A stretch of DNA of 64,000 bases, taken from the NCBI GenBank assembly GCA_950106755.1, contig OX467082.1:27652001-27716000 (forward strand), in the 5' to 3' direction. Positions 1-64,000 of this stretch are shown in pieces; the first letter of the stretch is position 1, and each line of letters begins with the position of its first letter. The stretch comes from Climacium dendroides. Lineage: Eukaryota > Streptophyta > Bryopsida > Hypnales > Climaciaceae. The translations under genes were made by a program, and so were the position numbers. Under the pieces are notes generated by a model. That model ran no database searches, was not told where the DNA came from, and saw nothing but the letters and a program-made list of their open reading frames with translations.

Positions 1-75
1 AACTACCTTCTGGAGCTTCACCTCAACCGGAATGGGGCCAGCCGATCCCGCTCTCTTCCTACGCAACAGCGCCAT
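1..75 (-). CDS. LTR ORF, N-terminal codons only (copy A)
   Basis: ATG at 75 on the minus strand opens a frame beginning MALLRRKRAGSAG and continuing PIPVEVKLQKVV before the window ends. The same start, with the basic RKKRAGSAG-type stretch and the KL.KV motif, is seen in copies B (7,343) and E (48,971). This argues that it is the true start. Function unknown; see the entry for the ORF in LTR-F. Confidence 0.5.
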   Translation of the reverse strand, partial: MALLRRKRAGSAGPIPVEVKLQKVV

Positions 76-324
76 GGACGTAGGTGGTCTCACTCAAATT
101 CCTTTCCGATTCTACCTTACCCTCTTCTAGCCGCACATCCCATTCCTCACTTCTCTCTTCAATTTCAACCGAAAGTAGTATCAGTAACACACTATCAAAT
201 TCTACAAGTACGCTCTCACACATCACCATACAATTACTACACGAAGGCACGAGGTGCTAGAAACAGCACAAAGAGCGCCTAAATTGCAAGAAAATGAAAA
301 GAGGTAAGACTGGTAAGGCCAGTC

Positions 325-332
325 CTTAAATA
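325..332 (-). promoter_or_regulatory. TATA-like box of LTR-A
   Basis: TATTTAAG on the minus strand, about 250 bp upstream of the ORF start, at the place equivalent to TATTTAAA at 7,071 in LTR-B. Confidence 0.4.
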
Positions 333-609
333 GTCTTAGAACCCCGTACTGGCCATTATGACCTTTTCCGGTTCTGAAGGCTTGACATCCGGTCTAACCC
401 TAATCCGGTTCCTAGACTAATTTCAGATGGGTTTCCAATTCCAACCAATTTGAACTTGGAACTGGATTAGATCCGGTCCATTTACTATTTCATTTTTCGT
501 ATATAATTCTGGTTTTCCTACAACTTTTGATTAGATCTGGCTCCTTTCCACTAGTTTCCACTCCAACTTTTAGGTAAGCTAAACAAAACCAAAAATTCAC
601 GTTGCGACA

Positions 610-2249
610 TAGGAAAGTTCTCATTATCGGCAAACCCTAAAGACAGGTTCACCATTAGTGATTGTAAGGACGAGAGACATAGAAGAGTCCTAGAGTTCCT
701 CATCCCGATCCTATACCCGGAAAAACCCACGCAGGTCACTGTTACAGTAGCCAAGACGATTTTTGAGGCTATGGAAAATAGAATTGTCTACTGGGATAGG
801 ATCATAGCCGGAATTGTCGCCAAGTTAGCCAAGCATATGACCCAGGCTAAAGGTAGTTCAGTTAGCACTTATCTCTTTCATCTGTATCACCAGCAAGAAA
901 TCTTGAGCAATGAGGAGGTAGTCCAATATGATACAGGAAACGCCATTTTGAAGTACGGGCTTACTAGAGAGGAGCCAAAGGATCTGGTCAAGTCAAAACC
1001 GGAAGAGCAACCCGAGGAGCACTTAACCAATCCGAGGACAAAGAAAAGGAAGTCAACGGATCCGGGGTCACGGATCAAACCTCCGGTTATGGAGAAAGGC
1101 GAGTTGAGCAAGGATCCAGAAGAAGACCAAGGGTTGGCATTTTTCATTGTCGGATTCGAATGGATACAAAAAGCCAAGGTGCCTCACGACAACCTGGCGG
1201 ATCTGGTGATTGAGACTACAGAAGTCCTAAAGGTAGAATTGGACCAAATCATGCAAGCAGTCAAGCGATTGCCAAAACCGGAAGACTTGAAGAGCAAGGA
1301 GGACCGGATCCACTAACTGGAGACGAAACGGGACCAACTTCAATCCCGCCTAAATTGGACGAAAGGAGAATTAACAGCCATGAAGCAACGGAAGGAGGAG
1401 GCCCTAACCCTTGTCAAGAACTCTTTAGGATCAATAAACACGATAGCAGATGTCGTCATGAAAGTGGCCCTAATCGATGTCAGGTAACTACGAGAGGGTC
1501 ACTTGACCGGAACGAAAGTGTTGACAATCTTGGTAGATTTCACCGCCTAGATGGAGTGTATCTTGGGGAAAATGAGGCACCTGTTTCGTAGCGTAGATCC
1601 AAATCAGGTGATGGATTTCTCGATCTTTCCAAAACTTCCTTTTGTCACAAGCACTCCAAGGCGTCCATCAACGCACCAACCGACTCGGACGGAAGGACTG
1701 AAGGAGATACTAGTGCCAACGTAGCCCACTTCAAACAAGATGTGCATGACAAAGTTGGACTTCAAGCCAGCCTAGGATCCGGAGCACGAATCTAGCGCAA
1801 AATCTATCCCAATGCCACCCAAAGCTTCAACACCGGAACCTCCTAGGGCCTAGACGGCACCCAACCTTTTAAGAGGAACCTTCAAAGTTCCGGGGAAGGG
1901 AGCTAGGGGTGATTTAATCAAGCGGATCGGAGTAATGACCAATCCGGCTCGGACGAATCCGAATAGTTTCACACACATACAAGAGACTACACTGAAAAAA
2001 AAGAGCAAACCAATGACACTAGGAGAAACGCCGCAAGAGAAAGAGATGGAGGTGCAAATCATCAAAGATTCTGAGGAAGAGAATGCTCATTCTTTTTCCA
2101 GAACGAAGGTGGATAGCGATCCGTCTTCAATACAAGGCCACATTCAAACCCGCGCGGCAACAAAGACAACTCCGGTGAGGAGCGTAAAGGGGACGTTGAC
2201 TAGTGACATGGGCAACTGCTCAAAGAAGACTCGGAACGCGAGACAATAG
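610..2249 (+). pseudogene. LTR ORF, copy G, 5'-truncated and decayed
   Basis: From 610 the plus strand reads GKF.....NPKDRF then RHRRVLEFLIPILYPEKPT, followed by STYLFHLYHQQE near 890. These are the core motifs of the LTR-ORF N-terminal domain, at the same spacing as in copies E and F. An open stretch (771-1,316) follows, with a basic and acidic linker. A later frame (1,935-2,249) carries a Ser/Thr/Lys-rich tail with TTPVRSVKG, similar to KVTPVRGRD in copy D. Stops and frame changes lie between them, so the copy is dead. Its first ~110 codons were cut away by LTR-A. It contains no zinc knuckle or enzyme motif. Confidence 0.6.
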
Positions 2250-4300
2250 TGTTTTAGGAACTGATAATTTTGGATCCAGAACGGGTTTCCAAGCGTAGAT
2301 CTGGGTTTTGGATTTTTAGGCAAGTAGCTTAGGAATCTCTAGTCTTCTCGGGACAACTAGCAGTGATCTTTTTGGATATCCCGGGATAATCAGTAATTAG
2401 TTGCTTGGATTTTCGAGTGCCTTTTCAAGCGTTTTGGCGTTTTGACTTTGGTTTTGTATTAATATTTAATGGCAAACAAGTTAGTGTCCTGCATTCCATT
2501 CTAGCACTTTCATATATGTCATTTCATTTCCCTTCTTTAATCCAAACAAATTGAGGTACTACTAGTTTGACTTTAGATACAAAGTTGCAACTGATGGAGG
2601 GGGTGTATCTGAGAATTGGTGTCGTGACCCAAATGACACTTTACAGCTTTCAACAGCTCACTAGGTTCACCACAATCCACTTACAGCATCACTTGGTCAC
2701 AAACTGCCTAACACTACACATGCCCAGCACACACAATGTTAGTCCACATTTCCAACTCATTTTACCAAGTCCTAGTCACCGGGACTACTAGCACACACTC
2801 CCATTGTGACACCGGACATGTCACTTAGTAACATGGGACAAAACTTCCACCTTAATATGCAAGGACCCATGGTGGCACTACTCACCATGGCCCTAACCGC
2901 CCTTGAGTGTCACCCCGCTCCATGCTAGCCCCTTTTGCATTTGCTATTCATCCACTAGAGGTAACCGACGCTCACAATTTGGGACACATCCAAGGAGGCC
3001 TAGCAAGGAGCGGGACTCCACCCAACCGATGCCACGGGACACAAACAAGTATCCCATGATGCCTTAAAGTAGTGATGAAGTCACCACCACCAACCATGAG
3101 TCACTAGGACTCACTAAGGCTCCAAGGAGGGAGGAGGGAGACCAACCCCTCTTATAGTACTCTCTGTGGTATAGGTCGAAGGAAGTCCTTGGATAACCTT
3201 GGGTTGTGGAAGACCACCCACTTCCAACCCAAATTGCCAAGTTACGTCACCGTTTGGACTTCCAAACTTCCAACCGGCGTAACTTTGCACTCAGAGCTTC
3301 AAATCCAACATGTGAGCCCATTTTAGATATCTACGCGACGAGTAGATGCCGATGGACTTCTCACTCGTCCCATTTGGACAAGTTTTTGCAAAGTTATGGC
3401 CCTCTAAGATTCGGATTCACTAGAGGAGGCGTCACGCCTTCACCACAGCTCTTCTTTTGGCCATAACTTTTGACTCATGTCTTAGACCTCATAATGCTTG
3501 TCATTATAAGTTCCTTGTGTTCATAGTTTTTCAATGATATGCCACATGATATACTTTCTTCTGAGATTCATTGAGAACCCCTCACACCTAACCCTCAAGT
3601 GTCCTAGTACCACCAGAACCTAATCAACTTTGGACAGCCATAACTTTTAGCTCATAACTCCAAATTGCGCATTCTTTTTGCCATTAGAAGTGTATTGTCA
3701 AGAGCTTTCCAAGCATGTGTGACACTGTATCATTCACTTCAAAACTAGGGCGTCATTGCGCCCTGTTTGATCGGGAGTCTCTCAAATCTCCCTACTTAGT
3801 CTATTGCAAGGCTTGGGAAGTCACCCCCAAGGTCCTCCCTTGCGCACTCCAAGTAGATAGGGGCATGACAATTGGGGTGAGAGAGGGACGGATGTGGAGG
3901 AATTCGGATTGTGGATGACAGATCTTTTGGGTATTGGAATAGTTGTGAAGAGATGTGATCTGGGTAAAGGAGTGTGAGTATAACGTGTCTTTAAATCGTC
4001 GTAACAACGATCTGGATAGGAAAATAGAGGTCCATGCGAGTCTAGAATCGGGGTGATTCCGCGTGGAGATAAGCAACCGCTAGTAGGGAGATCTCTTACT
4101 ACTCCGAAAGGTCTACCAACCTCCGAATTAGTGAGCTAACTTTCTATCGACATCCTTCCTCATAGATATAGAAGTCCAGATCTGTCATTGTAGTGAGAAG
4201 AGTGGTAAAGTTCATTTGTGTGACTTGTCTCCGAATCCGCCAATCCAGAAATTGTGAGAGGATACTTCCTCTTCCTCATAGTGCAACTTTGTCATCTGAG
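2250..4300. other. Repeat-like DNA, no gene recognised
   Basis: A purine run (2,595-2,602) is followed by TGTCGTGACCCAAATGACA at 2,620. This looks like a polypurine tract and LTR start of a different retrotransposon, but no matching end was found. The phrase 'gccataactttt' recurs at 3,462 and 3,641, as in many repeats of this window. The short ORFs have no recognisable product. Confidence 0.3.
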
Positions 4301-4317
4301 GTGTGTTATTAATTAAA

Positions 4318-4690
4318 GTCAAAGGTTAGAAGTGTTAGACAGACAAGTGGTGAGTCCCCACCCCTCTTTAGATCAAGGGCAGACCCTCTGAGGGTAAAAC
4401 AAAGGCAACAAAAACCGATAGTTGGAGGAGACGAAACCAAATTTTGTTTGTTGCGAATCCAGATAGGAATCCGAAAAGTCTTGGTTTTCCGGAATGGAGT
4501 GAGAAAGTAGTGAAAAATACGAGCGGATTGAACGTTTGAGAAAGAGGTAGTGACAATCCGGAAGTCCTTAAATCACCGACACCAAACTAGAATTCCCCGG
4601 GACGATAATCCGTGTCATTTTGCAACAATCTGTTGTTGTAAAAATACTTATGGCTAACTACTCATACAACACCTGCTGTCCAAACCGGAA
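4318..4690 (+). repeat. Diverged duplicate of the LTR-G 3' end
   Basis: The order 'cccacccctctttaga', 'gggtaaaacaaaggcaac', 'ccgggacgataatccgtgtca' and 'aaaaatactta' is repeated at 5,520-5,840 in the same orientation, about 1.2 kb downstream. The two copies flank the inverted-repeat element at 4,741-5,475. Confidence 0.45.
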
Positions 4691-6793: not shown

Positions 6794-7070
6794 TGTCGCA
6801 ACGTGAATTTTTGGTTTAACTTAGCTTATCTAAAAGTTGAAATGGAAACTTAGAAAAAGGAACTGGATCCAATTAAGAGGCATAGGAAAACTAGACATAT
6901 ACAAAGAAAATGAAATAGTAGGTGAACCAAATCTCATCCAAGCCAAAGTTCAAATTGAAAGGGAACGGAAACCCATCCGAATTTTGTCTACGAACCGGAT
7001 TAGGGTTAGACCGGATGTCAAGCCGTCAGAACCAGACAAGATCATAATGTCCAGTACGGGGTCTTGAGAC

Positions 7071-7078
7071 TATTTAAA
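7071..7078 (+). promoter_or_regulatory. First TATA-like box of LTR-B
   Basis: TATTTAAA, 272 bp upstream of the ORF start at 7,343, at a position conserved in LTR-A. Confidence 0.4.
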
Positions 7079-7712
7079 GACTAGCCTTTTTAGTCACACC
7101 TCTTTTCATTTTCTCGCAGTTTAGGCGCTCCTTGTATTCTCCTTTGTTTCCAGCACTTTATTTTTCCGTGTAGTGTTTGTTTGTGAGATTAAAGTAGTGT
7201 GTGAGAGTATACCTGTAAACCACGAGAGTGTGTGTTGCAGATGCTATTTCCGGTTGAGATCGAAGAGAGGAAAGTAAGGAACAGCACGTACAGCTAGGAG
7301 AGAGTAAGGCAGAATCGGAAAGGTATTGGAGTGAAACGATCTATGTCCATACTGCTGTTGTGTAGGAAGAGAGCGGGATCGGCTGGCTCCGTTCCGATTG
7401 AGATGAAACTCCGGAAAGTAGTTCTAGTTATTCCCTCTAAAGAACTGGAAAAGGTGTCGCACCCTAACTTTTTTATTTTTCTCTCTATCATGTTCTGTAA
7501 CACGGAATCCGGATTGAGTATACCCGGATTAGCATGGAAGAGGAAAGAAAAGCCAAGGGTTAGAAAGACTAGAAACATAAGCCCTGAATGAACCAGATTA
7601 GGGAGCGGAACGGATATCGGAAACGCATCCGGTCTAGTCCCCTAATTGGAGGAACGGATCCAGAATTCGCGTCCGAAAAATCGAAAAAAAAGTAATGATG
7701 AGGTTTTTGGGG

Positions 7713-7720
7713 TATAAAAG
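7713..7720 (+). promoter_or_regulatory. First TATA box of LTR-C
   Basis: TATAAAAG, identical in sequence and context to 50,323-50,330 in LTR-F. Confidence 0.5.
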
Positions 7721-8183
7721 AGACTGTTTTAGGGTTTGTCTGTCATTTGCACCTGGGAGCACCAACGTACTTGGCGCGCTCTCAGTGCTTTGAGTTTGTG
7801 TCTGCAAATTGAGTGTTTTTGTGTGAATTGTGCAAAATCGGAGAGTTGTGAGTAAACGCATTTGTTTTCTTTACACGGGCGTGGAGATTAGAATAGAATT
7901 GAGTGCGTGAGCAAGGCGGAAATTCAGAAAGAGAGAGAGAGAGAGAGACAGAGAGGGAAAGGGAGCACCGCAGCACTTATGCATTGAGCGATTCAGCCAA
8001 GGTCGAGGGGAGTGTGTGAGGAAACGGGACGTGCGGCTAGGAGAGAAGATAGGTAGTTAGAAATTAGAGAGTAGAAAATTTTGTTAGACCGGACCTCGTT
8101 CCAGAAAGTTAGGAAAAGTTCAGATCCGAAAATCTTGGCCGGATAAGTGTCGGATTTTCGGGGAGACCTTTTTGTAAATTCTG

Positions 8184-8190
8184 TATATAA
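8184..8190 (+). promoter_or_regulatory. Second TATA-like box of LTR-C
   Basis: TATATAA in the context TTTTTGTAAATTCTGTATAT, conserved at 14,823 (LTR-B) and 52,484 (LTR-F). Candidate start of genomic RNA. Confidence 0.4.
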
Positions 8191-10757
8191 TTCAAGTCTC
8201 AAGATTGAGATTGAGAGTTTTTCCTTCTTGCATAGGCTGTCTCTTGTGTATTGTCTATTAATTTCCTTATCTTCCCAAAGATTGGCCGGATAAAGAAGGG
8301 AGAGATTGAGTATAGATGAGCAGAGTGTGAGAGGATCTTCTCCCCTTGTTGCCTTCTTGTGATTGCAGGTGCATGTAAACAGGTTGTAAGTGTTGGGAGT
8401 GAGTCAAGACACCTCAGTAGGTTTAAGGTTTATAATTCCGGGTGAAATAACTAGTGCTAGGCTAGGCAGTAAGAGAAAGGATTCTCAAACTGTGCTAGAG
8501 CTGCTAGATGGAATGTCTGGATTAGCCTCTGAACACTTGAGAGGTCTCACCATCTGAAGAAGTAAATGGAAGAACATTAGATTATGCTGGTACGGGCAGA
8601 CGCACTTGTAGCCACCTTAGTTTCGCACGGATTGCAAAAGATAGTAAGGTCGTTGTAGTAAGTGAGGGTCGTACGGGGGATCTTTGTGTGACCTACAGGC
8701 TGAGATTACTTCCAGTTTGCTGTGAAAGGTCAAACCAAATCCTGTTAGGATAGGAGAATAGATTGGGTTAGTGAATTTTCCATTACTATAAAAACCGGAA
8801 AGAGAGGAGTGTCTACCTCTCTGAAAATAAGTGACAGATCCCTCTAAAGTGCCGACAGAGGTTAAACAGAACCGGAATAGAAGTTGAGGAAAGGAAGCCC
8901 TCGATTAAAGTAGTACGAGATCCGGTCGGAAGTGTGAATTCCGGGTTGGTTCTTGAAGGTTATCAATTAAGTTTGATTCGGGTTAGTGTTAGTCTGGACC
9001 AGATTAGTTTATAGGAGAATTAGAAAATCATCCGGTATTTGGGAAAAAGGGTGAGAGAGGTATAACTAAGAATAATGGAATTAGGAAACTTTCCTCAAAT
9101 CACCTAGTAATACAAAACACTTCACAGAGTCTCTCGGATTCGATCTTTAGAGTCACTATATTATGCTTTAAAGAGGTTTTTGTGAGCATAATAGGGAATT
9201 TCACTTACCTTCTGCTGCGACAAAAGGCCCAACTCATGAAAGATTTAACTAGCATGGATTGCCAAGGATTTGTGGAAAAATCTTGAAGATCAAAGACGAA
9301 CAAATGGTGAAAGAGCTCTTGTGCAAGTTGTGTCATAGCACAAGGAAGCACAAATCCTACCCATAGGTGTTAAATTGATGTAAAACACCTTAGATGACTT
9401 GTGTATCGTTCCCACAAGATTTCAATGTTAGTTTCCTCAAGATATCCGGAACAAGATTCGGAAAACACCAAACCCAAGCAAAACCGGATCTAAATATTTG
9501 CAACATGAAACTCTCTCTCAATACCCTCTCTTCTCCATGTTCTGATTCCCTTACATCCACTCCAAGTCTATCACCAGTAATCAAACAAGGAGAATGGTCA
9601 TAATCCTCTACCCCTCCCTATCCGGATCAACTTAGACGGATGCGGAACCGGAAAGAGGATTTCTATCCGATTACAGTAACTCACAAAATGTTAGTTTTAC
9701 CTCTACCAAGAGGGTTCCGCTCTTTGGTTTTAGGAAGGGAACGTAAACCCTACCCTTCAAACATGTTTAGAGTGAAATGAAGATCCACTTAGAATAACAA
9801 CAACAAATACCAAAAAGAAATAGGAAATAGTTACTTCCTCACAACTAATCCGAATGTTGATCCAGACTAGCAGGTCACTCAGGAAACCCCTATTATCCTC
9901 CCAGTACTACAACGATAGACCTATCCGGACAGGACCCCAAGAACGTGATCTGGCACCCGATAACTGAGAGATCCTAACTACCTTCCTGTTCCTCTCTTCC
10001 GAATCCAACAAGACCTCATCAGACGTCGGCTAACATTCGTTCTCCCTCCTGAAGAATTCACCCAACCTAAGAATGGCTATCCTACTTAGAAGACTCCCAA
10101 GGAACTTCAACAACTAAAATACCCTCTCAGTACACAAAGTTTTCCTTAACCAAATCCTCAAAGCTCTCAAAATCAGATCCTAGATAGAATCCGGGGGCTA
10201 CTTGTCTTCCTCCACACCTACAAACCAGCTACCCGCACTAAACAATGGTTCTAGCATTGCACGGCATACCAACACAGAACTTAGCCTTTTCAGGCCAACA
10301 CTTATGAAGTGGAAATCTGAAATCAATTCGCAAAGTGTTTGAAAAACACAAATAAGAAAACACCCGGGGCTTCAAACTAACTTCAGCCCCCTAAATACAC
10401 ACTCCATGGAACACCAAAGGTCCCAAGGAATAAAACTAAAGGACAGGAGAATGACAGGTGTCATTCCTTATCCTTCTAAGTTGGCTTTCCTACCAACCCC
10501 ATCTGATCCGCAAAATGTGGATCTCAGATCCTAAAAATCCGGAAAGTGCGGCCCAAGTGCATGCACCTGAAAAGCACCTCCCAAGCTACTTCCTACCTAT
10601 CAAAAACTTGAGTTTTTGGCTGACCATGCTAGGGTCGCTTCCCAGAAACTTCCTAACAACTTTCCTATCTATTTCCTAGCCTTCTTTGGAGAAGGTTCCT
10701 CTAACTTTGTTGCCCCCTTCCTAACTGGTTGTTTCCTACTGGCTGACGGTTTCCCAC

Positions 10758-11126
10758 TCAAGGGCGGATTCCCTTAGACAGTGTTGAGGTTCTCCCTTTG
10801 AACTTTGCTGGTGAGATTTGCTCAAGTTCCAATTCCTCTTCTGATCCGGTGTCTTCCGAATCCTCTTCTCCGGATCTCGACCGACTTTCCTCCCGCTCGG
10901 ATTGGCTTGGAGACTCGTCCTCCGCGGATTGTTGACTCCTTAGAGGCACGTCTCTTCCTCTGACGGGAGTAACCTTCTTCACAATCTTCTTGGCGGGTGA
11001 GGGTTGAGAGCCTTTACTCTGTGGTGTGCCTAAGTCAGATTCCGACTTCCGGATTCGATCCTTCGATCCGGATCCGTGCACTGATCCTTCTTTCCTCCCC
11101 TCCATACCCTTAGAGGTTGGTGTCAA
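10758..11126 (-). pseudogene. Probable C-terminal part of LTR ORF copy D, shifted frame
   Basis: Directly after the stop of the 486-codon ORF, another frame is open for ~122 codons. It is rich in Ser, Glu, Arg and Lys, with KKVTPVRGRDVPL. Copy G has a comparable TTPVRSVKG stretch at the end of its ORF. So this was probably the C-terminal tail, lost by a frameshift. It could instead be a chance frame in a biased sequence. Confidence 0.35.
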
Positions 11127-11135
11127 CTCATCCTC

Positions 11136-12596
11136 CTACCTTTCCCGCTTGGCTGGCGTCTTTGTTGGAGTCTTTGTGGGCGCATCCTTTTTGGTTGGCT
11201 TCATCTCTTCATCCTTCCTCTTTATTCCGGATTCCGGAAACCGTTCTGTTTGGTGAAGAACATCTCGAACTTCAAACATGAACCTCTCCATCTCCTCAGA
11301 ATACTCTGCCAAAACTAAGACAGCCTTACCTACGGCTTCCGGTCCTACCTCATGGATTCCCTCATCATAGAATTTGGCTTTGTTTACAACATCCGCAGTG
11401 TTGGAAACAAAGGCCCCAACTCTCCTAATGGCCCCCTTAAACTCTGAGGTAAGCCGTTCCACCTCTCTCTTCTTTTCCTCACCCTTCTCAATTTGCCGCT
11501 GGAGATCCGCATTCCTCTCAGTCAACTCTTTGATGCGGGTCTCCCACTTCCGGTTTTCACTATCTCGGATCAATCCTTCTACTTTCTCCGCAAGCTCTAA
11601 CACATTGATTCCTCCAAGCAGTCCACATACATTCCTCACTACTCCTCTCTCTGTGTCAAGCTCCTCCCAGACTCTCCCTAAGTCCGAAATGATCCTCCCC
11701 AAAGTATCCTCTCCCAGAATTTCCGGTTCCGGCGAGACTTTCCCCTTCTCTCTGGATTCCTTCTTAGAAGAGACTGAAACCCTCTCAGCCTCTGTCCTCC
11801 TTTCGGAAGGCTCCTTCCTTCTCTCTGAGGATCTCCTCTCAGATCCCTCATCTGGTCCCTCCTTTCTCTCTTCTTCCTCTTCCTCTCGGGGTGGAGTAAG
11901 ATTAAGTTTCACTAGGGTGGCTGCGGCCTTGTACATGGTCTTCTCTGAAGTTTTCAGAGTACCTAGGAAGTCATACAGGTGAAAGAGGAATGGCCCAATG
12001 GGGGTGGCCTTTGCGTTTCCTAGGGCGTTCACCATCTTTCCTACCAGATCTTTCACTATTCCTCCCCAAAATACTTTCCTTTCCCCACTCAACGCTCCGA
12101 AGATCGTATTGGCCCAAGTTACCGTGACCCGGTTTGGCCGTTCCAGATACAGGATCGGTACTACAAATTCTAACATCCTCCTCTCTCTTGTCACCTTGCA
12201 ATCTGCTACTACGTAGCCATCCTTAGGGTGAGGAGGGTTAAAGAACTTACCTTCCACGAACTTGTGTACCCGCGAAGCCATCCCCTCTCTAGGTCGAGGA
12301 AAGTCGTAGACCCTCTTCCAGATGTCCACAGTCCACCTTCCAGGCAAAGCTCGGACGGTCTTGATCCATTCGTTCGACTGCTCATTCATCAACTCCCGGA
12401 TCATTTCCTCGCTCTTCAAGCTCCATAGTCGGCAGAGGAATCCCGCACACCCGAGTTGGCCCAGATCCTCCTCCAGCTGCTTCCGCTCTCCGTCATCCTT
12501 CGGAATCATTGGACAGATGCTCTTGATCTTGAAAGAAAATGACCCGCTTGCTTCCGCCTTCACCATGGTTGCAGAACTCTCCAAAACACTCACCAC
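11136..12596 (-). CDS. LTR ORF, copy D, 486-codon open frame
   Basis: The longest unbroken copy of the LTR ORF. In order it shows: an N-terminal helix-rich part with IKSICPMIPKDDGERKQLEE and CAGFLCRLWSL (residues ~25-65); W.VDIWKRVYDF (~90); GKF....HPKDGYVVADC (~115-130); RRMLEFVVPILYLERP (~138); NTIFGALSGERKVFWGGIV (~165); ATPIGPFLFHLYDF (~195-210). An E/R/S-rich charged linker (~235-290) follows, then an amphipathic, probably coiled-coil region with many E/K/R (~300-420) including NKAKFYDEGIHEVG, and a Lys/Thr/Pro-rich end. There is no zinc knuckle, protease, RT or integrase motif. A second ATG 10 codons in is an equally possible start. Function unknown; nucleic-acid binding or assembly is only a guess. 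Confidence 0.6.
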   Translation of the reverse strand: MVSVLESSATMVKAEASGSFSFKIKSICPMIPKDDGERKQLEEDLGQLGCAGFLCRLWSLKSEEMIRELMNEQSNEWIKTVRALPGRWTVDIWKRVYDFPRPREGMASRVHKFVEGKFFNPPHPKDGYVVADCKVTRERRMLEFVVPILYLERPNRVTVTWANTIFGALSGERKVFWGGIVKDLVGKMVNALGNAKATPIGPFLFHLYDFLGTLKTSEKTMYKAAATLVKLNLTPPREEEEEERKEGPDEGSERRSSERRKEPSERRTEAERVSVSSKKESREKGKVSPEPEILGEDTLGRIISDLGRVWEELDTERGVVRNVCGLLGGINVLELAEKVEGLIRDSENRKWETRIKELTERNADLQRQIEKGEEKKREVERLTSEFKGAIRRVGAFVSNTADVVNKAKFYDEGIHEVGPEAVGKAVLVLAEYSEEMERFMFEVRDVLHQTERFPESGIKRKDEEMKPTKKDAPTKTPTKTPAKRER

Positions 12597-14822
12597 TCAA
12601 ACCTCCTGCCTTTTCTTGCCACAGCTCCCGGTCAATCCTCCTCCTCTCCACGACAGGATCCGGAAAGTAAGATCACCCAATCCTCTCACACCTCTAAAGG
12701 CAGACCTTGCTCTGAGAGCATTCCCAAACCACAAAGACACAATGAGGTTTGAGGAACCAAACCCCTGCGTATCCTTTCCTAGCTGTCACAGCCGTTGGGA
12801 AAGTAGCCGTTTCCTCAATCATCACGGAGGAAACTAGCCGTTAAAACGGTCCTCCGTGATGTATGGGATTACCGTTGGATCCGGGATTTCCTCTTCCCAT
12901 CCCGATAATCTGCCGGTAGCGTGCGGATGCGTTTGCTTCCGGCCCCAGTATATTTTTCGACCCTTGTTCCGTTCCTCGGATGCGGATCCGGTTCCGGATC
13001 TTTAGAAAAATAGGAATCTTACAATATCTTTCTTAACCAAATTATCTATCTACTACTAATCCAATAGTGAGGTAGGGTTAATATTGGTAATATAATTAGT
13101 TTGCCATCTTGCAAATCAAAAAATTTTACCAATGTCCACTCTTTACTTATATATTCTATATAACCATCCTCATCCTCTCATTTTGGTCTACGACAAGTTG
13201 TCCAATGAATTCGACAAGACCTTACAAAGAAATCTGGCCCTCTAGACTAAGGAAGTATGGAGAGCAGTGTATGACTTCCGGGTAGGTGGTCTAGAAATGG
13301 CAGGCCGGAAGGATGAGTTCATCCGAGGCAAATTTTAGGGTGCCTCCAATCCGAAGGACGAATATGCAATCGAGGATTGCATAGACAACCGCCACCGCCA
13401 CCTTCTTCAGTTCCTAGTTCCTATCCTCTACCTAGAAAAGCCAACAAGGGTGACAATCACCCTTAGTAACACTATTTTCAGTGCCCTATGTGGGATCCGG
13501 AAAGTTGACTGGGCCCAGATTGTTTTCAATCTGGTCATCCAGCTCATTGGGAGAACGAGGAAGAGTAGGGCTACTCCGATATACCCCTATCTCTTTCATA
13601 TGTACCATAACCACCAACTCCTCACCAACGCAGAAGAGAAGGAGTGGAGGATCCAGGAAGTCCTCCTGAAATACGAAGAGTCAAAGACTGACGATGAGGT
13701 GGAATCCGTTTCCGAGTCGAAACAGGAAACTAAGGAAGAGGAGGAGGAAACTACATTGTTGCCAATCAAGCGATAGAAGACAACGCCTCCCCACAAGCGA
13801 GGGACGCCACCGAGTCATCACAAGTCAGCTCTGAAGGGAAGAACGGAAGAAATGAAGACTATCTCTAAAGAGGAAATGGATCCCCGGGATCCATTTAACA
13901 ACTTAAAAGCCATCCTATGCAGCATCCGAGCAGATTGGGAGATCAAGAATAGGACCCTGGTAGCAATCGGAAGGTTCGTGGATGCGCCATTGGAAAGCAC
14001 GCTACCGGAGAAGGTAGTAGATTGTATCACCGATCTAGTTGAGGCCCAGAAACAAGAAGAAGAGATAATCCATTTGCAAAAGGAGGTGGATACCTTGAAG
14101 GCGGAAATCTTCGCCTTGAAAGAGGATGTGACCGCCACTCGAGAAATGGCAAAGGGGACTCGGAAGATAGCTGAACAAGTGAAGGACACCTTAAGAGTAT
14201 TTAGGATGGCCGCCATCAAGGCTAAGTTGTTCGACGAGGAGGTACAAAAGGAGAAGAAACTATCCGGTTCCAAGATAGTTAGAATTCTCACAGATTATGC
14301 CGAGTGGGTCGAGGCAGTGATGATAGAGGCACAGATATCGGCGGACCGGATTGAAGAGAGTAGCCGAAAATTGACTGGGGCTACATGCTCCAAAGGAATC
14401 CAACTCTCGGATCTCTCTCTACTGGAGTCGTTTCAGAATGAGTTAGTTTCAAAGGAGGGAAAAGATAGGATTCCCAAGTCCAAAAAGTCCGAACAAGCGC
14501 CAATACCAACCAACACACCTAAATTTGCGATTGACTTGGAGTCTACGCCCGATCCCAGCCAAGGCGACCCAACCCCTAAACCTACGGATGGAGAACGGAA
14601 TCGAAACTTGAGTGAAGTCTTTGAACAGATGGAAGTCGATCCTAAAAGTCTCACCTTAAGATTAGATTTATAAATTAGTTAGGATTGTATATACTAGGGA
14701 GGTTAAACACGGATCCGGATCCTATTCCGATCCAGCTAAGTAGTAGATAGGACCGGAAGTCCGGCTTGAATTGCTACGGAATTCCGTGGCACTTTTTACC
14801 TTTTTGTACTTTAGGATTTTTG

Positions 14823-14830
14823 TATATAAA
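14823..14830 (+). promoter_or_regulatory. Second TATA-like box of LTR-B
   Basis: TATATAAA, about 150 bp after the end of the ORF, preceded by 'ggatttttg' and at the position matching the second boxes of LTR-C and LTR-F. Confidence 0.4.
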
Positions 14831-15879
14831 CCAGACCTTGAGAGGAGAACTAGGAGGGAGAAAGTCTTCTTTCGCAATCTCTTTGAGTTTTCTATTCACT
14901 TCCTTTTTGTATGTCTCTTCCGTGTGTGGCAGCGTTGTATGATAAAGAGTGAGGAGGGCATAAGTAGAATTGGGAGTGATTTTCTTCTCTCCTTGGTGTT
15001 TCCATTCTTATTTTAAGTGTATGTGAGTAGGTATTAAAGAGGTGGGAGTGAACTTTAGTTCCTCAGCACCTCTAGAGTTTAGGATTCCAGGTGAGAAAAC
15101 TGTTGTTAGACTAGGTGGATAGGAAGGGATTCCTTGGTCGCGCTAAAACTACCGGGTGGGAAATCCGGTTGAGTGTCCAATCTCCTGTAAGGTCTCACTG
15201 TCCTTGTTGGTAAACAGAAAAGCTTTAGTAAATGTTGGAATGAACGGGTATACTTGTAACCACCTAACTTCGTACGGATAGGAACTAGTATCCAAGGTCG
15301 TTGTAGTATAAGAGGATCGTACGGGAGGGGGGTTCTTTGTGTGACTTGTAATCTAGATTACCATCTAGGTTGTTGTGAAAGACCAAACCGGATCCGTAGT
15401 AGTTAGAAGAGTAGGAGATAGGATAGTGGGTCTTTAGCCACTATAAATTACAGAAAGAGTGGTGGGCCTACCACTCTTAAAATCAAGCGGCGACCCCTTT
15501 AATGGTGAAACAAAGACTAAACTAAATCGGATAGGATTAAGGATACGTGTAGATAGTCCGAAACAAATTGGTCTACATGGGTACACAGGACCAGAATTAG
15601 TAAGATCCTGGGGTGGTGGTGATTGACAAACCGGATAGTTAGTAGGATCAGAACGGTGGGAGTAAGCCAATTCTCCGCTTTCTGAGTGTTGTAGTGTTTC
15701 TGGTTTCAGACATAGGACCAAAAAGTAGGGTTTGGATACTGATTTAGCTCAATCACTTAATAAGGCTAGATACTTCATAGAATCTTGTGAATTCAATCTT
15801 TAGAATCACTTAGTTATGTTCTAGAGTGGTTTTTGGGAATATAACGGGGAATTTATTTACCTTGTACTACGACACCAAT

Positions 15880-45840: not shown

Positions 45841-46354
45841 AAGTATTTTCGATGAAATCTATCATCAAATCTGTATTTGATGGGGGAAAGGTGTGACGAA
45901 CCCATGTGTCGTAGCACAGGGTGAACAATTCCCCTGTTATACTCTCAAAAACCCTCTAGAGCATAACAAAAATGACCCTAAAGATCGAATCCGCGGGATT
46001 CTGTGAAGTAACTAGCTTTATCATACCATTAAGACTTCATCAACATAACAAATCTTGTTTCTGGTTTCAGATCTACTGATTGGAAACACCAAAAACCACC
46101 CGAAAGCTACCAACCGGATCTCTCAACTTCCTATTCTGCTGGTATTCCGGACCGCTAATACACACTCAAATCGAAGATAGGACCAATCCGGTCCGGTTGA
46201 TAACCCTAACCAATCCGTTCCGGTCAGTCCTTTCCTCTCCTTCACTCACATTCGGTTTGATTTAGCCTTTGTTTAACCATCAGAGGGGTCGCCTCTTATA
46301 ATTGAGAGTGGTAGGCCCACCACTCCTTCCGTGACTTATAGTGGCTGAAGACAC

Positions 46355-46525
46355 TAGTAGAAAAAGGGGCTATAAATTACTTGTCTTTTATGACTGCATC
46401 AACAACAATGACTGCACAGTTACTTCAAAATAACTTCAAATGACTTCAAAATGACTATTTTCTAGTCGTTGTTGTTAGTGTAGTCATAAAAGACAAGTAA
46501 TTTATAGCCCCTTTTTCTACTAGTG
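46355..46525. mobile_element. 171-bp CACTA-type MITE in LTR-E
   Basis: Starts CACTAGTAGAAAAAGGGGC and ends in its complement, GCCCCTTTTTCTACTAGTG. The 3-bp duplication AGA flanks both sides (46,352-46,354 and 46,526-46,528), diagnostic of the CACTA superfamily. The interior folds into a long hairpin with 'atgactgca' / 'tgtagtcat' arms and shares 'caacaacaatgactgca' with the MITE at 61,896. Confidence 0.92.
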
Positions 46526-47115
46526 AGACCCACTCTCCTATTCTAACAATTTCCTACTCTTTCTCGGATTCGGTTTGATCCCTCATAGTAGCACATGTAA
46601 GAATCTGGCTACAGGTCACACAAAGATCCCCCGTATGATCCACTCATACTACAACGACCTCGGAGTATATTCTTTTACCCATACGAAGCTAAGCGAACTT
46701 AAGTACACACGTCCGTACCAGCACTAGCTCAAGTGATTCCGTTTTCCCAACAGGATAGTGAGACCTCACAGAAGATCGGACACTCAACTGGATTTTCCAC
46801 CCAGGAGTTTTAGCGCAACTAAGGAATCCCTCCCTATCCGCCTAGCCTAACAACGGCTTTCTTACTCGGAACTTAGTAAACTCAAGAAATGCTGAGGAAC
46901 TGTAAAATACTCAAACTCTTCAACTCACCGCTCACATGCAAGGATAGAGAACACAATACTCAAGGGGAGAACTCACTCCTCAATCTACTCGCGCCTTCCT
47001 AACTCCTCAACATTCCGTTCTGCCAACCTCGGGAAATACAAAACAATGAAAGAGCATAATAGAAAACACAAGAAAATTGGAAGAAGAAGACTCTCAACTC
47101 ACCTCGCGGTGGCTG

Positions 47116-47123
47116 ATTTTATA
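47116..47123 (-). promoter_or_regulatory. Second TATA box of LTR-E
   Basis: TATAAAAT on the minus strand, downstream of the ORF, matching the position of the second boxes in LTR-B, C and F. Confidence 0.4.
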
Positions 47124-47305
47124 CTTAGAAAGAATTTACAATTAAAGCTGGAGATCATGGAAAAGTGCTCGCACGCCGAGCGAAAAATCTGGATCTGATC
47201 CATAAAACTAATTTAGGTTCCAGTTCCGGTCCTAACTAACTTACTAACTAGTTTACTATCTACACAAAAGCTGAAACTAATCCTAACTACTCTCTAGCAG
47301 CTTAA

Positions 47306-48971
47306 TCATACCATCGGGGAGCCGAGAGTTAGGCTAGGATCGAGATCTTCAAAGACTTCCGAGAGGTTCCGGTTCCGCTCCCCTGAAGCACCAATAGGTC
47401 CCGCCTCTTCATGGTTTGGCGAGTCAAGGTTGATCGCCTGTATGCCCGAGTTTCCAACCTCGGGTTCCTGCAAAGTCTTCTTTGACTGTGGGGTCTTGTC
47501 CTTCCCCTCCCTAGAAACTCCCAGGTTGAAAACACTTGTCAGGGAAAGTTCCGATAGTCGGAGGGGGATCTTGGCTAACCGCTTGTTGTTCTCTTCCATC
47601 CGTTCTGTAGCAGTTCTCGCCTGCTCCAGAGTCCCTTCAACAGTTCAACCTGCTCAACAAAGTCAGTGAGGATCCGGACCACCCGGTTACTAGAGACCTT
47701 ATTCTCCTTTTGGACCTCCTCACTAAAGAGTTTGGCCCTGATTACGGCGGTTCCAGGTTCACCGAACACCGTCCGGATCTGCCCGATCAGCTTCCGGGCT
47801 TCCTCCGCCATGTCTGCGGTAGCAGTCGCATTTTCCTTCAAGATGAACAGCTCCGACTTGGAAGAATCCAATTCTTCCTAAAGCTTCCTGTTCTCCTGCT
47901 CCATCTTCCGGATCTCGTCCGGACTAGAAATACATTTAGCCACTTTCCTGGCTAACGCACTAATGCACTATCCGGTTTGGCCCCTACCAACATTCCAATC
48001 TCCTCCAAGATTGCCTGATTGAGCTCCCAATCCGCTCACAGTCCGCCCATGATGTCAATCAATTGCTCGAACGAGTCATTTATACTTCCTCTTGGTTGGG
48101 AATACTCACCCTGGTGAACCTGTTTCCTTTGAACCGGATTAGAAGAGCCTGGTGGAGTCCCTCGTCCGTGTAGAGGAGTGGTCTTCTGTCGCTTGAACAT
48201 GGGTGGAGGCGGGTCGTCATCCTTGTCTTCTTCCTCAGCCTCGGATCCGTATTCCGGTTCCATATCCTCGTCGGAATCGGACTCGCCATACTTCAATAGG
48301 TTTTTGTGGTTCTTCCACTCCGTCTCCTCCGTATGCGCTAGGAGCTGCTGATGATTGTACAGGTGGAAGACATAGGGCGACAGAGGTGTTGCCCTACTCT
48401 TCTGAATCCGGCTAACTAGTGAGGAGACTAGTTCGGAAATGAACTTCGCCCAGTCCACTTTCCGCTCCCCTGTCAGCGCTCCAAAAATTGTATTGCCCAA
48501 ACTGATTGTCAACCGGGTGGGCTTATCCGGATGCAGAATCGGAACCAAGAACTACAGGAGTCGACGATGCCGCTCGTCGATACAGTCCTCCATAGCGTAT
48601 CCATCTTTGGGGTTGACGGCACCCTGGAACCTTCCGTGTACGAAATCGTCCTTTCGGCTGGCCATACCTCCACCCCCAGCCCGGAACTCGTACATCTGCC
48701 TCTAGTGTTCTTCCGTCCATTTGTGCGGTATGCCCCGGATTGTTCCATCGAACTGGTTGGAGGCCTTGACAAGGATCTCCCTCACCATTTGCTCCTCCCG
48801 GAAACTCCAGAGTTTCTCAACGAAATCCGCACATTCCATTACCGCCAGGTCCGCGAGAAGCTCCATCTTCTCGGGCTCCTTGGTAGGTATAACCGGACTT
48901 ATCTTCCGGAGTTTGACTTTGTGAGGAGGCGGTGTGGCAGAACCTCTATTTTTCTTCCGTAGCTGCGGCAT
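47306..48971 (-). pseudogene. LTR ORF, copy E, with stops and frameshifts
   Basis: ATG at 48,971 opens MPQLRKKNRGSATPPPHK, then VKLRKISPVIPTKEPEKMEL, ECADFVEKLWSFREEQMVRE and NQFDGTIRG.PHKWTEE. After a TAG (48,704-48,702) the frame continues to a second TAG (48,554-48,552). It then gives LVPILHPDKPTRLT, NTIFGALTGERKVDWAKFI and ATPLSPYVFHLYNHQQLL, followed by an Asp/Glu-rich linker. A TGA (48,038-48,036) and shifts follow. KAKLFSEEVQKENKVS (~47,760) and the tail GERNRNLSEVFEDLDPS (~47,370) then match copy B. The alignment with B and F is end to end, so a protein of about 530-560 residues was once encoded. Confidence 0.7.
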
Positions 48972-49462
48972 AGGAGCAGGTGTTCCTCCAAATCCGGAAA
49001 CCCTCAAACTCTCTCTCTCTCTGGCGCACAACCGTCCACACAACCTCTCTCTCTCTGATTCACACATGCGTCCTCTGCTTCCTAATAACTCGCACTTCTC
49101 TCAGCGTTTAGTTACTTGGCCGGAAAGACAATCTGCAACACACACTCATGCACGCGCTTATACTCACCCAGCCCTCAATACTCAGTACTCAGTCACTCAA
49201 TTACTCAGTACTCAGTCACTCAATTACTCAGTACTCGGCCGGAAAGATAATCTGCAACGCACAAGCATAAAATACACACACACTCCCAGCAAATGCCTAA
49301 CTCTGGCTTCTACACTCAGATCTAAAATACCCTCTCAGAGCGGATACTAAGGCTCAACAACACTAAGGGTGCAAGAATACGTAGGACACAAAGGACAGAA
49401 AGGTAAGGGGGGGCAGTAAGAGGACGTCAGAAACAAAGGGGGCTGAGCTGAAAACTCTTGCC

Positions 49463-49470
49463 CTTATATA
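49463..49470 (-). promoter_or_regulatory. First TATA-like box of LTR-E
   Basis: TATATAAG on the minus strand, about 490 bp upstream of the ORF start. Confidence 0.45.
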
Positions 49471-49786
49471 GTCTCCTACGACTCGGTTCCGGTCTATACT
49501 TAATCCGGTCTAGATCTAAAGGAAACTCTAGCCCTAATCCGGATTGGTTAAACCCGGTCCTTACTTAACAATCCGGTTCTACCTCTCTCCATGTTTTCAG
49601 ATCAATTTTAGGGAGGAATTAAATTCCGGTCCTAGCTTTCTTACTGATCGGATTGCTATTATCCAGTTCGAGATGATAACATCCGGTTCTCCGTTACATC
49701 CGGGTAGGACTTGACACCTTAAAGTTGATTTTTTGCGAAAAATACTTAGGTAAACTAAAAAAAATTCACTGGATTGCCTTGTCACA

Positions 49787-49799
49787 TTACCCCTTCCTC
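49787..49799 (-). other. Polypurine tract before LTR-E
   Basis: GAGGAAGGGGTAA on the minus strand, abutting the TG of the LTR. In LTR retrotransposons this purine tract primes second-strand synthesis. Its presence fixes the left boundary of the LTR. Confidence 0.7.
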
Positions 49800-49822
49800 A
49801 TCTGTGAGCGTCCCCGCGAACA

Positions 49823-50064
49823 TCAGTCCTCATCATCTGATGAAGCAATGAGATACTTCTTCACCCTAGATCCATTCACACGAGTATCCAGCCATTGCCC
49901 TTGCAAATTTTCAAATTGGAGGGATCCGTTCTGAAAGTCCTGGTTGACACGGAAAGGTCTCATCCATCGGGTATGTAGTTTACCTGGAAAATCCTTATGC
50001 CGGTTGTCATAAAGTAGGACAAGCCCGCCTTCTCGGATTCCGTGGTCAACTAGAAGTTTCCGGT
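49823..50064 (-). pseudogene. C-terminal end of a gypsy-type pol (integrase C-terminus)
   Basis: On the minus strand an open frame of ~80 codons ends at TGA 49,825-49,823. It contains GLVLLYDNRHKDFPGKLHTR then WMRPFRV, DTRVNGSRVKKYL and an acidic end DDED. The KLHTRW..PF.V pattern is the chromoviral/gypsy 'GPF/Y'-like integrase C-terminus that contacts DNA. It is cut at 50,064, where the oppositely oriented LTR-F begins. It carries no internal stop, so this end looks young. Confidence 0.7.
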
Positions 50065-50322
50065 TGTCGCAACCTAACTTTTTGATTTTTCTCTCTATCG
50101 TGTTCTATAACACGGAATCCAGATTGAATAGACCCGGATTAGCATGGAAAAGGAAAGAAAAGCCAAGGGTTAGAAAGACTAGAAACATAAGCCCTGAATG
50201 AATTAGATTAGGGAATGGAACGGATATCGGAAACGTATCCGGTCTAGTCCCCTAATCGGAGGAACGGATCCAGAATTCGCGTCCGGAAAATCGAAAAAAA
50301 AGTAATGATGAGGTTTTTGGGG

Positions 50323-50330
50323 TATAAAAG
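50323..50330 (+). promoter_or_regulatory. First TATA box of LTR-F
   Basis: TATAAAAG, 358 bp upstream of the ORF start; a textbook plant TATA box, conserved in LTR-C. Confidence 0.55.
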
Positions 50331-50680
50331 AGACTGTTTTAGGGTTTGTCTGTCATTTGCACCTGGGAGCACCAACGTACTTGGCGTGCTCTCAGTGCTT
50401 TGAGTTGTGTCTGCAAATTGAGTGTGTTTTTGTGTGAATTGTGCAAAGTTTGAGAGTTGTGAGTAAGCGCGTTTGTTTTCTTTACACGGGCGCGGAGATT
50501 AGAATAGAATTGAGTGCGTGAGCAAGGTGGAAATTCAGAAAGAGAGAGAGAGAGAGAGGGAAAGGGAGCACCGCAGCACTTGTGCATTGAGCGATTCAGC
50601 CAAGGTCGAGGGGAGTGTGTGAGGAAATGGGACGTGCGACTAGGAGAGAAGAGAAGTAGTGAGCTAAAAGAGAGACGGAT

Positions 50681-52352: not shown

Positions 52353-52483
52353 GTAGTTAGAAATTAGAGAGTAGGAAATTTTGTTAGACCGGACCTCGTT
52401 CCGGAAAGTTAGGAAAAGTTCAGATTCGAAAATCTCGGCCGGATAAGTGCCGGATTTCCAAGGAGACCTTTTTGTAAATTTTG

Positions 52484-52490
52484 TATATAA
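52484..52490 (+). promoter_or_regulatory. Second TATA-like box of LTR-F
   Basis: TATATAA after the ORF, in the context 'gtaaattttgtatataattc', conserved in LTR-C. Confidence 0.4.
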
Positions 52491-53966: not shown

Positions 53967-54459
53967 CACTAGTAGAAAAATACAGTGACCAAATTAACAA
54001 AAATCAACAGAAAAGTGTTGATTTTTTTTGTTAATTTGGACGTGTTGATTTGGGCACTTTTGAACAGAAAAGTGTTGATTTTTGAACAAAAATGTGTTGT
54101 TTAAGAACAAAAAAGTGTTGAATTTCTAACAAAAAAGTGTTAATTTTTTTGTTAATTTGGTCACATTATTTTTTTAAATTATTTTTTTTGAAAAAAAATG
54201 AATAAAAGTGACACATGGCAATGCCATGTAGGCACCCCCAACTATCCACGTGGCATGCCACACAAGCTACTTGAATGCCACATGGACAGTCCAAATGCCA
54301 CATTGGCAATTCACATGGCAAACGTTGCCATCAAGGTTTGAACCTTGAACCTCATGGTTGAGGCCCAAGACTCAAACCAATGCACCACTTATACATATAC
54401 ATGTTTAAAGTGTATATAAAATCTTATTTGTTTAGTTTTTCATTTTTTTTCCATTGTTT

Positions 54460-54856: not shown

Positions 54857-54910
54857 GAAATTCCGAATTGTTAATGTTTAGTTTTTAAAAAAATCTACAT
54901 TGTACAATTA

Positions 54911-58771: not shown

Positions 58772-58789
58772 TTGTACATTATATTCTTG

Positions 58790-63868: not shown

Positions 63869-64000
63869 TCGAAAAAAACCACGCACAAAAGTTTGGGTGG
63901 TTTCTTTGAACACAGTTTTGTGCGCATTTTTTTCTGTGTAATTCGCATTGATGTTTTCTAAATTTTTTGGACAGTGAATTAATTTTTTCGCAATTATAAA
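63869..64000. other. Start of an unidentified insertion at the window edge
   Basis: Pol coding sequence stops making sense after ~63,868. The new sequence has a short inverted repeat CGCACAAAA (63,882) / TTTTGTGCG (63,917). It may be the edge of another element or the break of the retrotransposon. The window ends before this can be judged. Confidence 0.3.

What the first reader, a model, noticed from the sequence alone, without database searches (positions are those of the whole stretch)
6794..15874. A long ORF sits inside the LTR of a plant retrotransposon
Six LTR units here (A, B, D, E, F, G) carry a homologous ORF of roughly 500 codons between their TGTCGCA-like start and TGCGACA-like end. 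For LTR-B (CCAAT) and LTR-D (AGTTG), 5-bp target duplications lie immediately outside the ORF-containing unit. No copy of the termini lies inside, so the ORF is within a single LTR. LTR-E confirms it is an LTR: a polypurine tract and a pol stop codon directly precede its start. The protein is not the zinc-knuckle Gag found at 59 kb and has no enzyme motif. LTR-borne genes are rare (the MMTV sag gene is the known animal case; Ogre/Tat plant elements have an extra ORF, but between LTR and gag). I know of no described plant family like this.
Basis: partly seen in the sequence, partly recalled or inferred. Interest (0 to 1): 0.87.

Follow-up and report, generated by a model that had tools for sequence, protein, structure and literature searches.

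The report
Protein gene inside plant retrotransposon LTRs
In this plant genome a family of Ty3/gypsy retrotransposons carries a protein-coding gene inside the long terminal repeats at both ends of the element, so that a lone surviving repeat can keep a copy of it, and its protein, which is conserved by selection, likely acts in the nucleus to help the family persist.

Summary
The units are true LTRs. Six (three in the window, three elsewhere on the chromosome; five carry ORF sequence, one has lost it) have TG...CA ends and perfect 5-bp target duplications. In two elements elsewhere in the same 412.6-Mb genome, the 5' LTR is followed by a tRNA-Asp-like primer site, the 3' LTR is preceded by the pol end and a purine tract, and both LTRs hold ORF sequence (LTR pairs 99.0% and 95.9% identical). 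In the first the ORF lacks its N-terminal domain; in the second both copies carry stops and the 3' LTR breaks off after 2.06 kb. Gag is a separate gene. The ORF is under purifying selection (dN/dS 0.10 and 0.22 in two comparisons) and has 159 database relatives. A profile comparison weakly suggests kinship with Transposase_32-like proteins, a domain reported in an Athila accessory ORF between pol and the 3' LTR. I infer that a 3' accessory gene entered U3, as sag did in MMTV, and that its product acts in trans, probably in the nucleus. Function is untested. The papers I searched showed no plant LTR gene like it.

The parts
1..609 (-). Unit A: first 609 bp of an LTR that starts TGTCGCA at 609 and leaves the window; no ORF visible
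   Evidence: 77% identical to the start of B
610..4671 (+). Unit G: 5'-truncated LTR of the L019/L022 subfamily with broken ORF (about 612-2246); interrupted between about 2503 and 3896
   Evidence: 68-70% identical to LTRs L019 and L022; protein homology
6794..7454 (+). Unit B, first piece: LTR start TGTCGCA after CCAAT; TATTTAAAG box (by eye)
7455..9222 (+). Unit C: solo LTR, copy of F from which the ORF is deleted; TSD AAAGG
   Evidence: 95% and 93% identical to the two ends of F; flanks
9331..13195 (-). Unit D: solo LTR, TSD AGTTG, 3865 bp, nested in B
   Evidence: 95% identical to the 5' LTR of the C2 element
11136..12596 (-). LTR-borne ORF of D (486 codons; methionine of the conserved start at codon 11)
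   Evidence: 159 homologues E<=0.01; 88 scored copies in the genome
13196..15874 (+). Unit B, last piece: ORF 13204 to about 14670 with stops, second TATA box near 14823, LTR end TACGACA, TSD CCAAT
45907..49786 (-). Unit E: 3' LTR with broken ORF (about 48959-47644); palindromic insert 46352-46525
49787..49802 (-). Polypurine tract GATGAGGAAGGGGTAA directly before LTR E
   Evidence: sequence
49823..50064 (-). End of pol (GPY/F-like region, name recalled) with stop codon 36 nt before LTR E
   Evidence: translation; same protein end in the C1 element
50065..53523 (+). Unit F: LTR, TGTCGCA...TGCGACA, no TSD; TATA boxes at 50323, 52484 and 53087
50727..52097 (+). LTR-borne ORF of F, frame broken after 51644
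58757..59862 (+). Separate gag remnant with zinc-knuckle-like motifs, in two frames
   Evidence: sequence
60190..63958 (+). pol (RT, RNase H, integrase) of the D family, split by a palindromic insert at 61895-62038
   Evidence: 94% identical to pol of the C2 element

Best explanation
A conserved protein-coding sequence lies inside the LTRs of a Ty3/gypsy retrotransposon family of this plant, at both ends of the two elements examined and in solo LTRs, and its product is likely a nuclear accessory protein that acts in trans for the family. Shown: the position, the copies in both LTRs (one element with the N-terminal domain missing, the other with stops), the separate gag and pol, and purifying selection on the protein. 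Inferred: the gene descends from a sense-strand accessory ORF that lay between pol and the 3' LTR, as in Athila elements. When the polypurine tract came to lie upstream of that ORF, the ORF became part of U3, and reverse transcription has copied it into both ends ever since, as with MMTV sag. Inferred: a TATA box ahead of the ORF would drive its mRNA, while a second box nearer the LTR end would start the genomic RNA. A solo LTR would then still be a complete gene. Predicted: the protein dimerises through its coiled coil and enters the nucleus through a basic tail. Its most likely job is to counter silencing or to aid the nuclear steps of the cycle. An element that moved although its LTRs lack the N-terminal domain, and an ORF-less LTR with intact target duplications, fit a product shared in trans.
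For: LTR identity: 6 units with perfect 5-bp TSDs (B, C, D; L015, L018 inner, L018 outer); C lacks the ORF. Element C1:300962-314334: LTR pair 99.0% over 2040 bp and 99.4% over 174 bp, PBS TGGCGCCGCTGCCGGGGA, PPT, ORF part in both LTRs. Element on C2: ORF at 222630-221173 and 205668-204211, pol between at 208494-207049, PBS after the first LTR, pol end and PPT before the second. L022: 5' LTR with the ORF region, followed by a decayed PBS, gag and pol. Spacing from pol match to ORF is 1381, 1386 and 1382 bp in three of 11 pol copies of the family. Selection: dN/dS 0.10 (L019/L022, 366 codons) and 0.22 (F/L015, 303 codons); pS 0.77-0.85 against pN 0.25-0.44 in the largest ORF segment of each pair among D, E, F and B. 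Separate gag: PF03732 at 2e-10. Transposase_32-like similarity: hhalign E 0.00098, 0 of 200 column shuffles as high. Basic C-terminal tail in 13 of 17 homologues of 640 aa or more. A sunflower Athila 3' aORF carries Transposase_32 and a nuclear signal (PMC11728184, abstract and passages).
Against: No expression data; transcription starts are guessed from TATA boxes. Of ten LTRs scanned, L019 and L022 have no strict match and L021 has none ahead of its shortened ORF. hhalign probability is only 22%, falls to 5.7% with E 0.0067 when three instead of four Transposase_32-like rows are used, and a direct profile search of the five proteins gave at most 3.4 bits, mainly in coiled coil. Those five proteins score below the family's own cut-off (best 26.4 of 45 bits). 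Basic tails are not a feature of all copies: B and F end without one. Recent pairs show dN/dS of 0.70 and 0.98, so many copies are decaying. In the C1 element the N-terminal domain is absent from both LTRs, and in the C2 element both copies carry stops. Eight of the 11 pol copies have no scored ORF at the 1.4-kb spacing; only 88 of 5688 ORF candidates were scored.
Confidence: 0.55

Rival explanations
1. The ORF is the first cistron of the genomic RNA: transcription starts at the TATA box near the LTR start, so the ORF lies in R/U5, the 5' leader, and is translated from the genomic RNA ahead of gag.
For: TATAAAAG, TATATAAG or TATATAAA lies 259-317 bp from the LTR start in F, C, L015, E and L018 inner, and at position 43 in D and L023. 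Most OTA elements have large non-coding regions (passage of PMC6317226).
Against: A TATA-like box (ACTATAA, about 435 bp before the LTR end in F) is invariant in the 7 LTRs aligned (the D and L019/L022 subfamilies were not in that alignment), a usual place for the genomic start. A long ORF plus about 1 kb of leader would hinder translation of gag (reasoning).
Confidence: 0.22
2. The ORF product is a structural protein (a second capsid-like or envelope-like component) made from the LTR, not a regulator.
For: Coiled-coil-like heptads, conserved domain of about 200 residues, high copy number. Env-like functions have been proposed for plant 3' aORFs (PMC7264820, parts 1-2 of 3 read).
Against: The element has its own Gag with a Retrotrans_gag domain and no similarity to the ORF.
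Confidence: 0.15
3. The ORF is a passenger: a captured sequence without function that hitchhikes in the LTR.
For: Many copies are broken; the ORF is deleted in C and lacks its N-terminal domain in the C1 element.
Against: dN/dS 0.10-0.45 outside the two most recent pairs; third-position excess across four diverged units; 159 database relatives, 33-49% identical among the 120 listed.
Confidence: 0.05
4. The units are not LTRs but a DNA transposon with TGTCGCA/TGCGACA inverted ends.
For: Short inverted ends and 5-bp duplications alone do not exclude it.
Against: Direct paired copies flank gag-pol with PBS and PPT at the expected places.
Confidence: 0.01

Closest known systems
MMTV sag (superantigen gene in the U3 of the LTR of a mouse betaretrovirus)
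   Same: Gene in the LTR, so present at both ends of the provirus; related sag copies survive mostly as solo LTRs (490 of 527 contigs without other retroviral genes) and show purifying selection (PMC4667437, passages).
   Different: Animal retrovirus and an immune target; no sequence relation was tested. Here the host is a plant and the element is Ty3/gypsy. The paper says the majority of sag is within U3; here the LTR holds the whole ORF.
Athila 3' sense aORF with Transposase_32 (sunflower Athila 14 ORF(+), 487 aa; PMC11728184, abstract and passages)
   Same: Similar length, sense strand, possible distant domain kinship, predicted nuclear, in a non-chromovirus gypsy element.
   Different: Described as a 3' aORF of the element, not as part of the LTR; the domain match here is below any cut-off.
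Retrosat2 ORF0, Grande gene23, Retand aORF
   Same: Extra protein gene in a plant gypsy element, with long LTRs in Retrosat2.
   Different: Retrosat2 ORF0 lies upstream of gag-pol (PMC3485330, passages); Grande and Retand aORFs lie between pol and the 3' LTR in antisense (PMC7264820).
Lentiviral nef and foamy virus 3' accessory genes (recalled, no call)
   Same: 3' accessory genes that run into U3 of the 3' LTR.
   Different: Only partly inside the LTR; animal viruses.

Membership tests
LTR (of an LTR retrotransposon) | TG...CA ends with short direct target duplication | tested here: met
   6 units with perfect 5-bp TSDs; F and L019 have none; the C1 element matches 4 of 5 (GTCCC/GTTCC)
LTR (of an LTR retrotransposon) | Two direct copies flank the coding region, with PBS after the first and PPT before the second | tested here: met
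   C1:300962-314334; C2 element, second LTR seen for 2.06 kb only
Ty3/gypsy | gag, then RT, RNase H, integrase in that order | tested here: met
   Pfam
Athila / OTA clade | tRNA-Asp-type PBS (assignment to tRNA-Asp, and as an Athila trait, recalled) | tested here: met
   TGGCGCCGCTGCCGGGGA and TGGCGCCGTTGTCGGGGA
Athila / OTA clade | Reverse transcriptase groups with Athila/Tat in a tree | not tested
   No named plant reference set on hand
Tat (within OTA) | Additional RNase H (aRH) | tested here: not met
   Only the one RT-linked RNase H region reported in the window's two pol frames at E<=0.1; the copy is broken and incomplete
Transposase_32 (PF20167) | Score above Pfam's curated cut-off | tested here: not met
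   Not listed for the proteins, nor among the 25 of 52 families printed; genome search of the family gave 5 places, 0 above the cut-off, none matching the LTR-ORF profile beyond 3.4 bits
Transposase_32-like superfamily | Collinear profile similarity beyond chance | tested here: inconclusive
   hhalign E 0.00098, probability 22%; E 0.0067, 5.7%; 33.3 against a maximum of 24.8 in 200 column shuffles
Retrotransposon Gag | Retrotrans_gag domain or similarity to the element's Gag | tested here: not met
MMTV-sag-like U3 gene | ORF upstream of the genomic RNA start (in U3) | not testable with these tools
   No transcript data; only TATA-like boxes

The most novel reading that the evidence does not exclude
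The LTR, not the whole element, is the selected unit: a self-contained mobile gene with its own promoter, a conserved nuclear protein and a transcript end, left behind in great numbers as solo LTRs that keep supplying a family-specific anti-silencing or mobilisation factor in trans, on which ORF-less LTR elements live as parasites.
Probability: 0.22. Interest if true: 0.88.

Novelty: new variant of a known kind. Interest (0 to 1): 0.74.

Why it matters
LTRs are ordinarily non-coding (so stated in PMC4667437, passages). A conserved gene within them changes how plant repeats are read: a solo LTR can be a surviving gene rather than an empty scar, and annotation that looks for extra ORFs only in the internal region would pass over it. 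Because the gene exists in both LTRs, LTR-pair dating and selection on the protein can be compared within one element. The case gives plants a parallel to MMTV sag, and its possible link to the Athila 3' accessory ORF makes a route testable: capture of a 3' gene by the LTR through a shift of the polypurine tract.

Tried and rejected
Tried without result: viral contigs and genome-contig scans with the protein profile gave no relative; the PDB sequence search gave only weak, mostly coiled-coil matches (best E 0.014); Pfam on 24 and 7 proteins gave only weak, mostly coiled-coil matches; the third protein search (Transposase_32-like query) found nothing; the Athila ORF-1 family (PF03078) was asked of the genome nine times and never answered, so that test is missing.

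Rejected: DNA transposon (PBS, PPT and paired LTRs); Gag (separate gene); chance ORF (selection); splicing as the origin of the ORF-less copy C (its junction shows no GT...AG; read by eye). Dropped before a count: the L018-inner/L021 row (the pair differs by a large deletion and is misaligned there; it read 0.78), and one of the five Transposase_32-like proteins (L027, near-copy of L026) from the profile after one search failed. PMC4031123 looked relevant, but the passages concern whole elements lying between LTRs. Of the 39 papers I opened only that one; several appear by title to use 'LTR ORF' for MMTV.
Full report
WHAT WAS CLAIMED AND WHAT IS THERE. Self-comparison of the window and reading of the sequence confirm nested units with ends of the form TGTCGCA...TGCGACA. 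B (6794-15874) is flanked by CCAAT on both sides, C (7455-9222, nested in B) by AAAGG, and D (9331-13195, minus strand, nested in B) by AGTTG. F (50065-53523) has no duplication. E (45907-49786, minus strand) begins 36 nt after a pol stop codon, directly after the purine tract GATGAGGAAGGGGTAA. Protein-level similarity joins ORFs in D, F, E, B and a truncated unit G at about 610-4671. Unit A shows only 609 bp and no ORF, and C is ORF-deleted, so five units, not six, show the ORF. Only D keeps a 486-codon open frame.

A WHOLE ELEMENT. Twenty 10-kb stretches of C1 were sampled; ORF relatives appeared in 5 of 20 (L015, L016, L018, L019, L020). Two more stretches gave a whole element at C1:300962-314334 on the minus strand. 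Its LTRs are 99.0% identical over 2040 bp and 99.4% over 174 bp, the 3' LTR being split by a 3.1-kb insert with an 8-bp overlap at its junctions. The 5' LTR ends TGCGACA, followed 10 nt later by TGGCGCCGCTGCCGGGGA, a tRNA-Asp-type primer site (assignment recalled). The pol end and the tract GATGAGGAGGGGGTAA lie directly before the 3' LTR. The outer flanks read GTCCC and GTTCC (4 of 5 alike). Both LTRs contain the C-terminal half of the ORF; the N-terminal domain is missing. A solo LTR 96% identical to it over 1.97 kb, L018:1807-5242, TSD GACAG, carries the N-terminal part as well, in a frame that is not fully open.

A SECOND ELEMENT holds query-length ORF copies. The genome search with the D protein scored 88 of 5688 first-look candidates, all 86-100% identical; by my count 23 of the 88 have no stop in the match. 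Two of the 88 lie on C2 on the same strand 17 kb apart (221173-222630 with 1 TGA and 2 TAG, 204211-205668 with 1 TAA), and a pol copy 94% identical to the window's lies between them (207049-208494). Fetched pieces show a 3864-bp LTR, 95% identical to D, whose end is followed 8 nt later by TGGCGCCGTTGTCGGGGA. They also show a second LTR preceded by the end of pol and a purine tract. The two are 95.9% identical over 2065 bp; the second stops matching after about 2.06 kb, so its far end and target duplication were not seen. In three elements the distance from the pol match to the ORF is 1381, 1386 and 1382 bp (C2; C1:50.76 Mb; C40:28.51 Mb). These are 3 of the 11 pol copies of this family (92% identity or more among the 88 of 1557 candidates scored); the other 8 have no scored ORF at that spacing, with 88 of 5688 ORF candidates scored. 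By my arithmetic about 0.006 same-strand neighbours within 5 kb are expected by chance. L022 adds a 5' LTR with the ORF region, followed 4 nt later by a decayed primer site and by gag and pol. Six units have perfect 5-bp duplications (B, C, D; L015 TATTA, L018 inner GACAG, L018 outer AGGTC); L019 and F have none.

THE PROTEIN. A search of 5.8 billion proteins gave 159 relatives at E <= 0.01 (120 listed, best 1.9e-78, 33-49% identity), none of those listed with a Pfam domain. A profile search gave 235 at E <= 1 (120 listed). The listing names no organism. The alignments show a conserved domain of about 200 residues, an acidic stretch, coiled-coil-like heptads (simple script score) and, in 13 of 17 relatives of at least 640 aa, a basic tail of the form SPRPKR...SKRRR. 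Between window units, third codon positions change most (55/35/115 between B and E, 75/69/141 between E and F, largest segments), with synonymous sites saturated (pS 0.77-0.85). In nearer pairs dN/dS is 0.10 (L019/L022), 0.22 (F/L015), 0.31 and 0.45 (D against L023, L024), 0.25 (L018 inner/E), and 0.70 and 0.98 in the most recent pairs: selection while the lineages were active, decay after insertion.

NOT GAG. The element has its own gag: 504 codons with Retrotrans_gag at 2e-10 (L021), and no similarity to the ORF. Pfam finds nothing above cut-off where bits were shown, and only E-values of 0.0047 or weaker among the 25 of 52 families printed. The family Transposase_32 (PF20167) gave five sub-cut-off places in this genome; none matches the LTR-ORF profile beyond 3.4 bits, so they are not LTR ORFs. 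Four of them, by the frames read, run from a domain into a coiled-coil-like tail. A profile comparison with the LTR proteins, four of the five used, gave E 0.00098 over 159 columns but a probability of only 22%; with three it gave E 0.0067 and 5.7%. In a control the domain score of 33.3 exceeded all 200 column-shuffled versions (maximum 24.8). I take this as suggestive kinship only. It matters because a sunflower Athila element carries a 487-aa sense 3' ORF with a Transposase_32 match and a nuclear signal (PMC11728184, abstract and passages).

HOW IT LIKELY WORKS. Shown: position, copies at both ends, selection. Inferred: the gene sits in U3. In F, C, L015, E and L018 inner a TATA box lies 259-317 bp from the LTR start, ahead of the ORF, and TATA-like boxes follow the ORF. 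One of these, ACTATAA (about 435 bp before the LTR end in F), is invariant in the 7 LTRs aligned and is followed by a hairpin whose stem differs between subfamilies (hairpin by eye); the D and L019/L022 subfamilies were not in that alignment. D has its box at position 43, L019 and L022 have none that fit, and L021 has none ahead of its shortened ORF. I therefore hold the U3 reading at moderate confidence. An Athila-like ancestor whose polypurine tract came to lie ahead of its 3' accessory ORF would place that ORF in U3 in one step; in E and the C1 element only some 36 nt, ending in the tract, separate the pol stop from the LTR. The N-domain-deleted C1 element has the deletion in both LTRs, so it moved in that state, and the ORF-less C has intact target duplications; both fit a product supplied in trans. 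The role (counter-silencing or a nuclear step) is a guess from the basic tail, the coiled coil and the Athila parallel.

WHAT IS KNOWN. [quoted passage not shown] the passages I saw do not speak of ORFs within LTRs. Retrosat2 ORF0 lies upstream of gag-pol (PMC3485330, passages). Searches for ORFs in LTRs brought up MMTV and, in what I opened, no plant case; most hits were seen only as listings, and subscription papers are mostly not held. In MMTV most of sag lies in U3, and sag copies survive mostly as solo LTRs (PMC4667437, passages). I file this as a new variant of a known kind: a Ty3/gypsy element, possibly Athila-like (tree not tested), with an LTR-borne gene.

Noticed in passing
window 46352-46525 and 61895-62038: Two related palindromic inserts (MITE-like; 80% and 96% self-inverted), one in LTR E and one inside pol.
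   Followed up: partly
window 56149-57840: 563-codon ORF with weak protein-kinase similarity (3.8e-05, below the Pfam cut-off).
   Followed up: no
window 53087-53130, 15442-15484, L021, L018: Conserved LTR block with an invariant ACTATAA and a hairpin whose stem changes between subfamilies in a compensating way (by eye).
   Followed up: partly
window 7455-9222: LTR copy with the ORF deleted but both ends and the target duplication intact.
   Followed up: partly
window about 37,400-40,950: Intron-like host gene that resembles a plant 2-phosphoglycerate kinase-like/LPA1 gene (recalled; Pfam found nothing in two frames).
   Followed up: no
window 54457-54860: 404-bp inverted self-match, 88% (large palindrome).
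   Followed up: no
L025-L029: Five distant, sub-cut-off Transposase_32-like proteins elsewhere in the genome; context unknown.
   Followed up: partly
L001:2469-3484 and 8985-10000: Identical 1016-bp copies about 6.5 kb apart next to the telomere repeat of C1.
   Followed up: no
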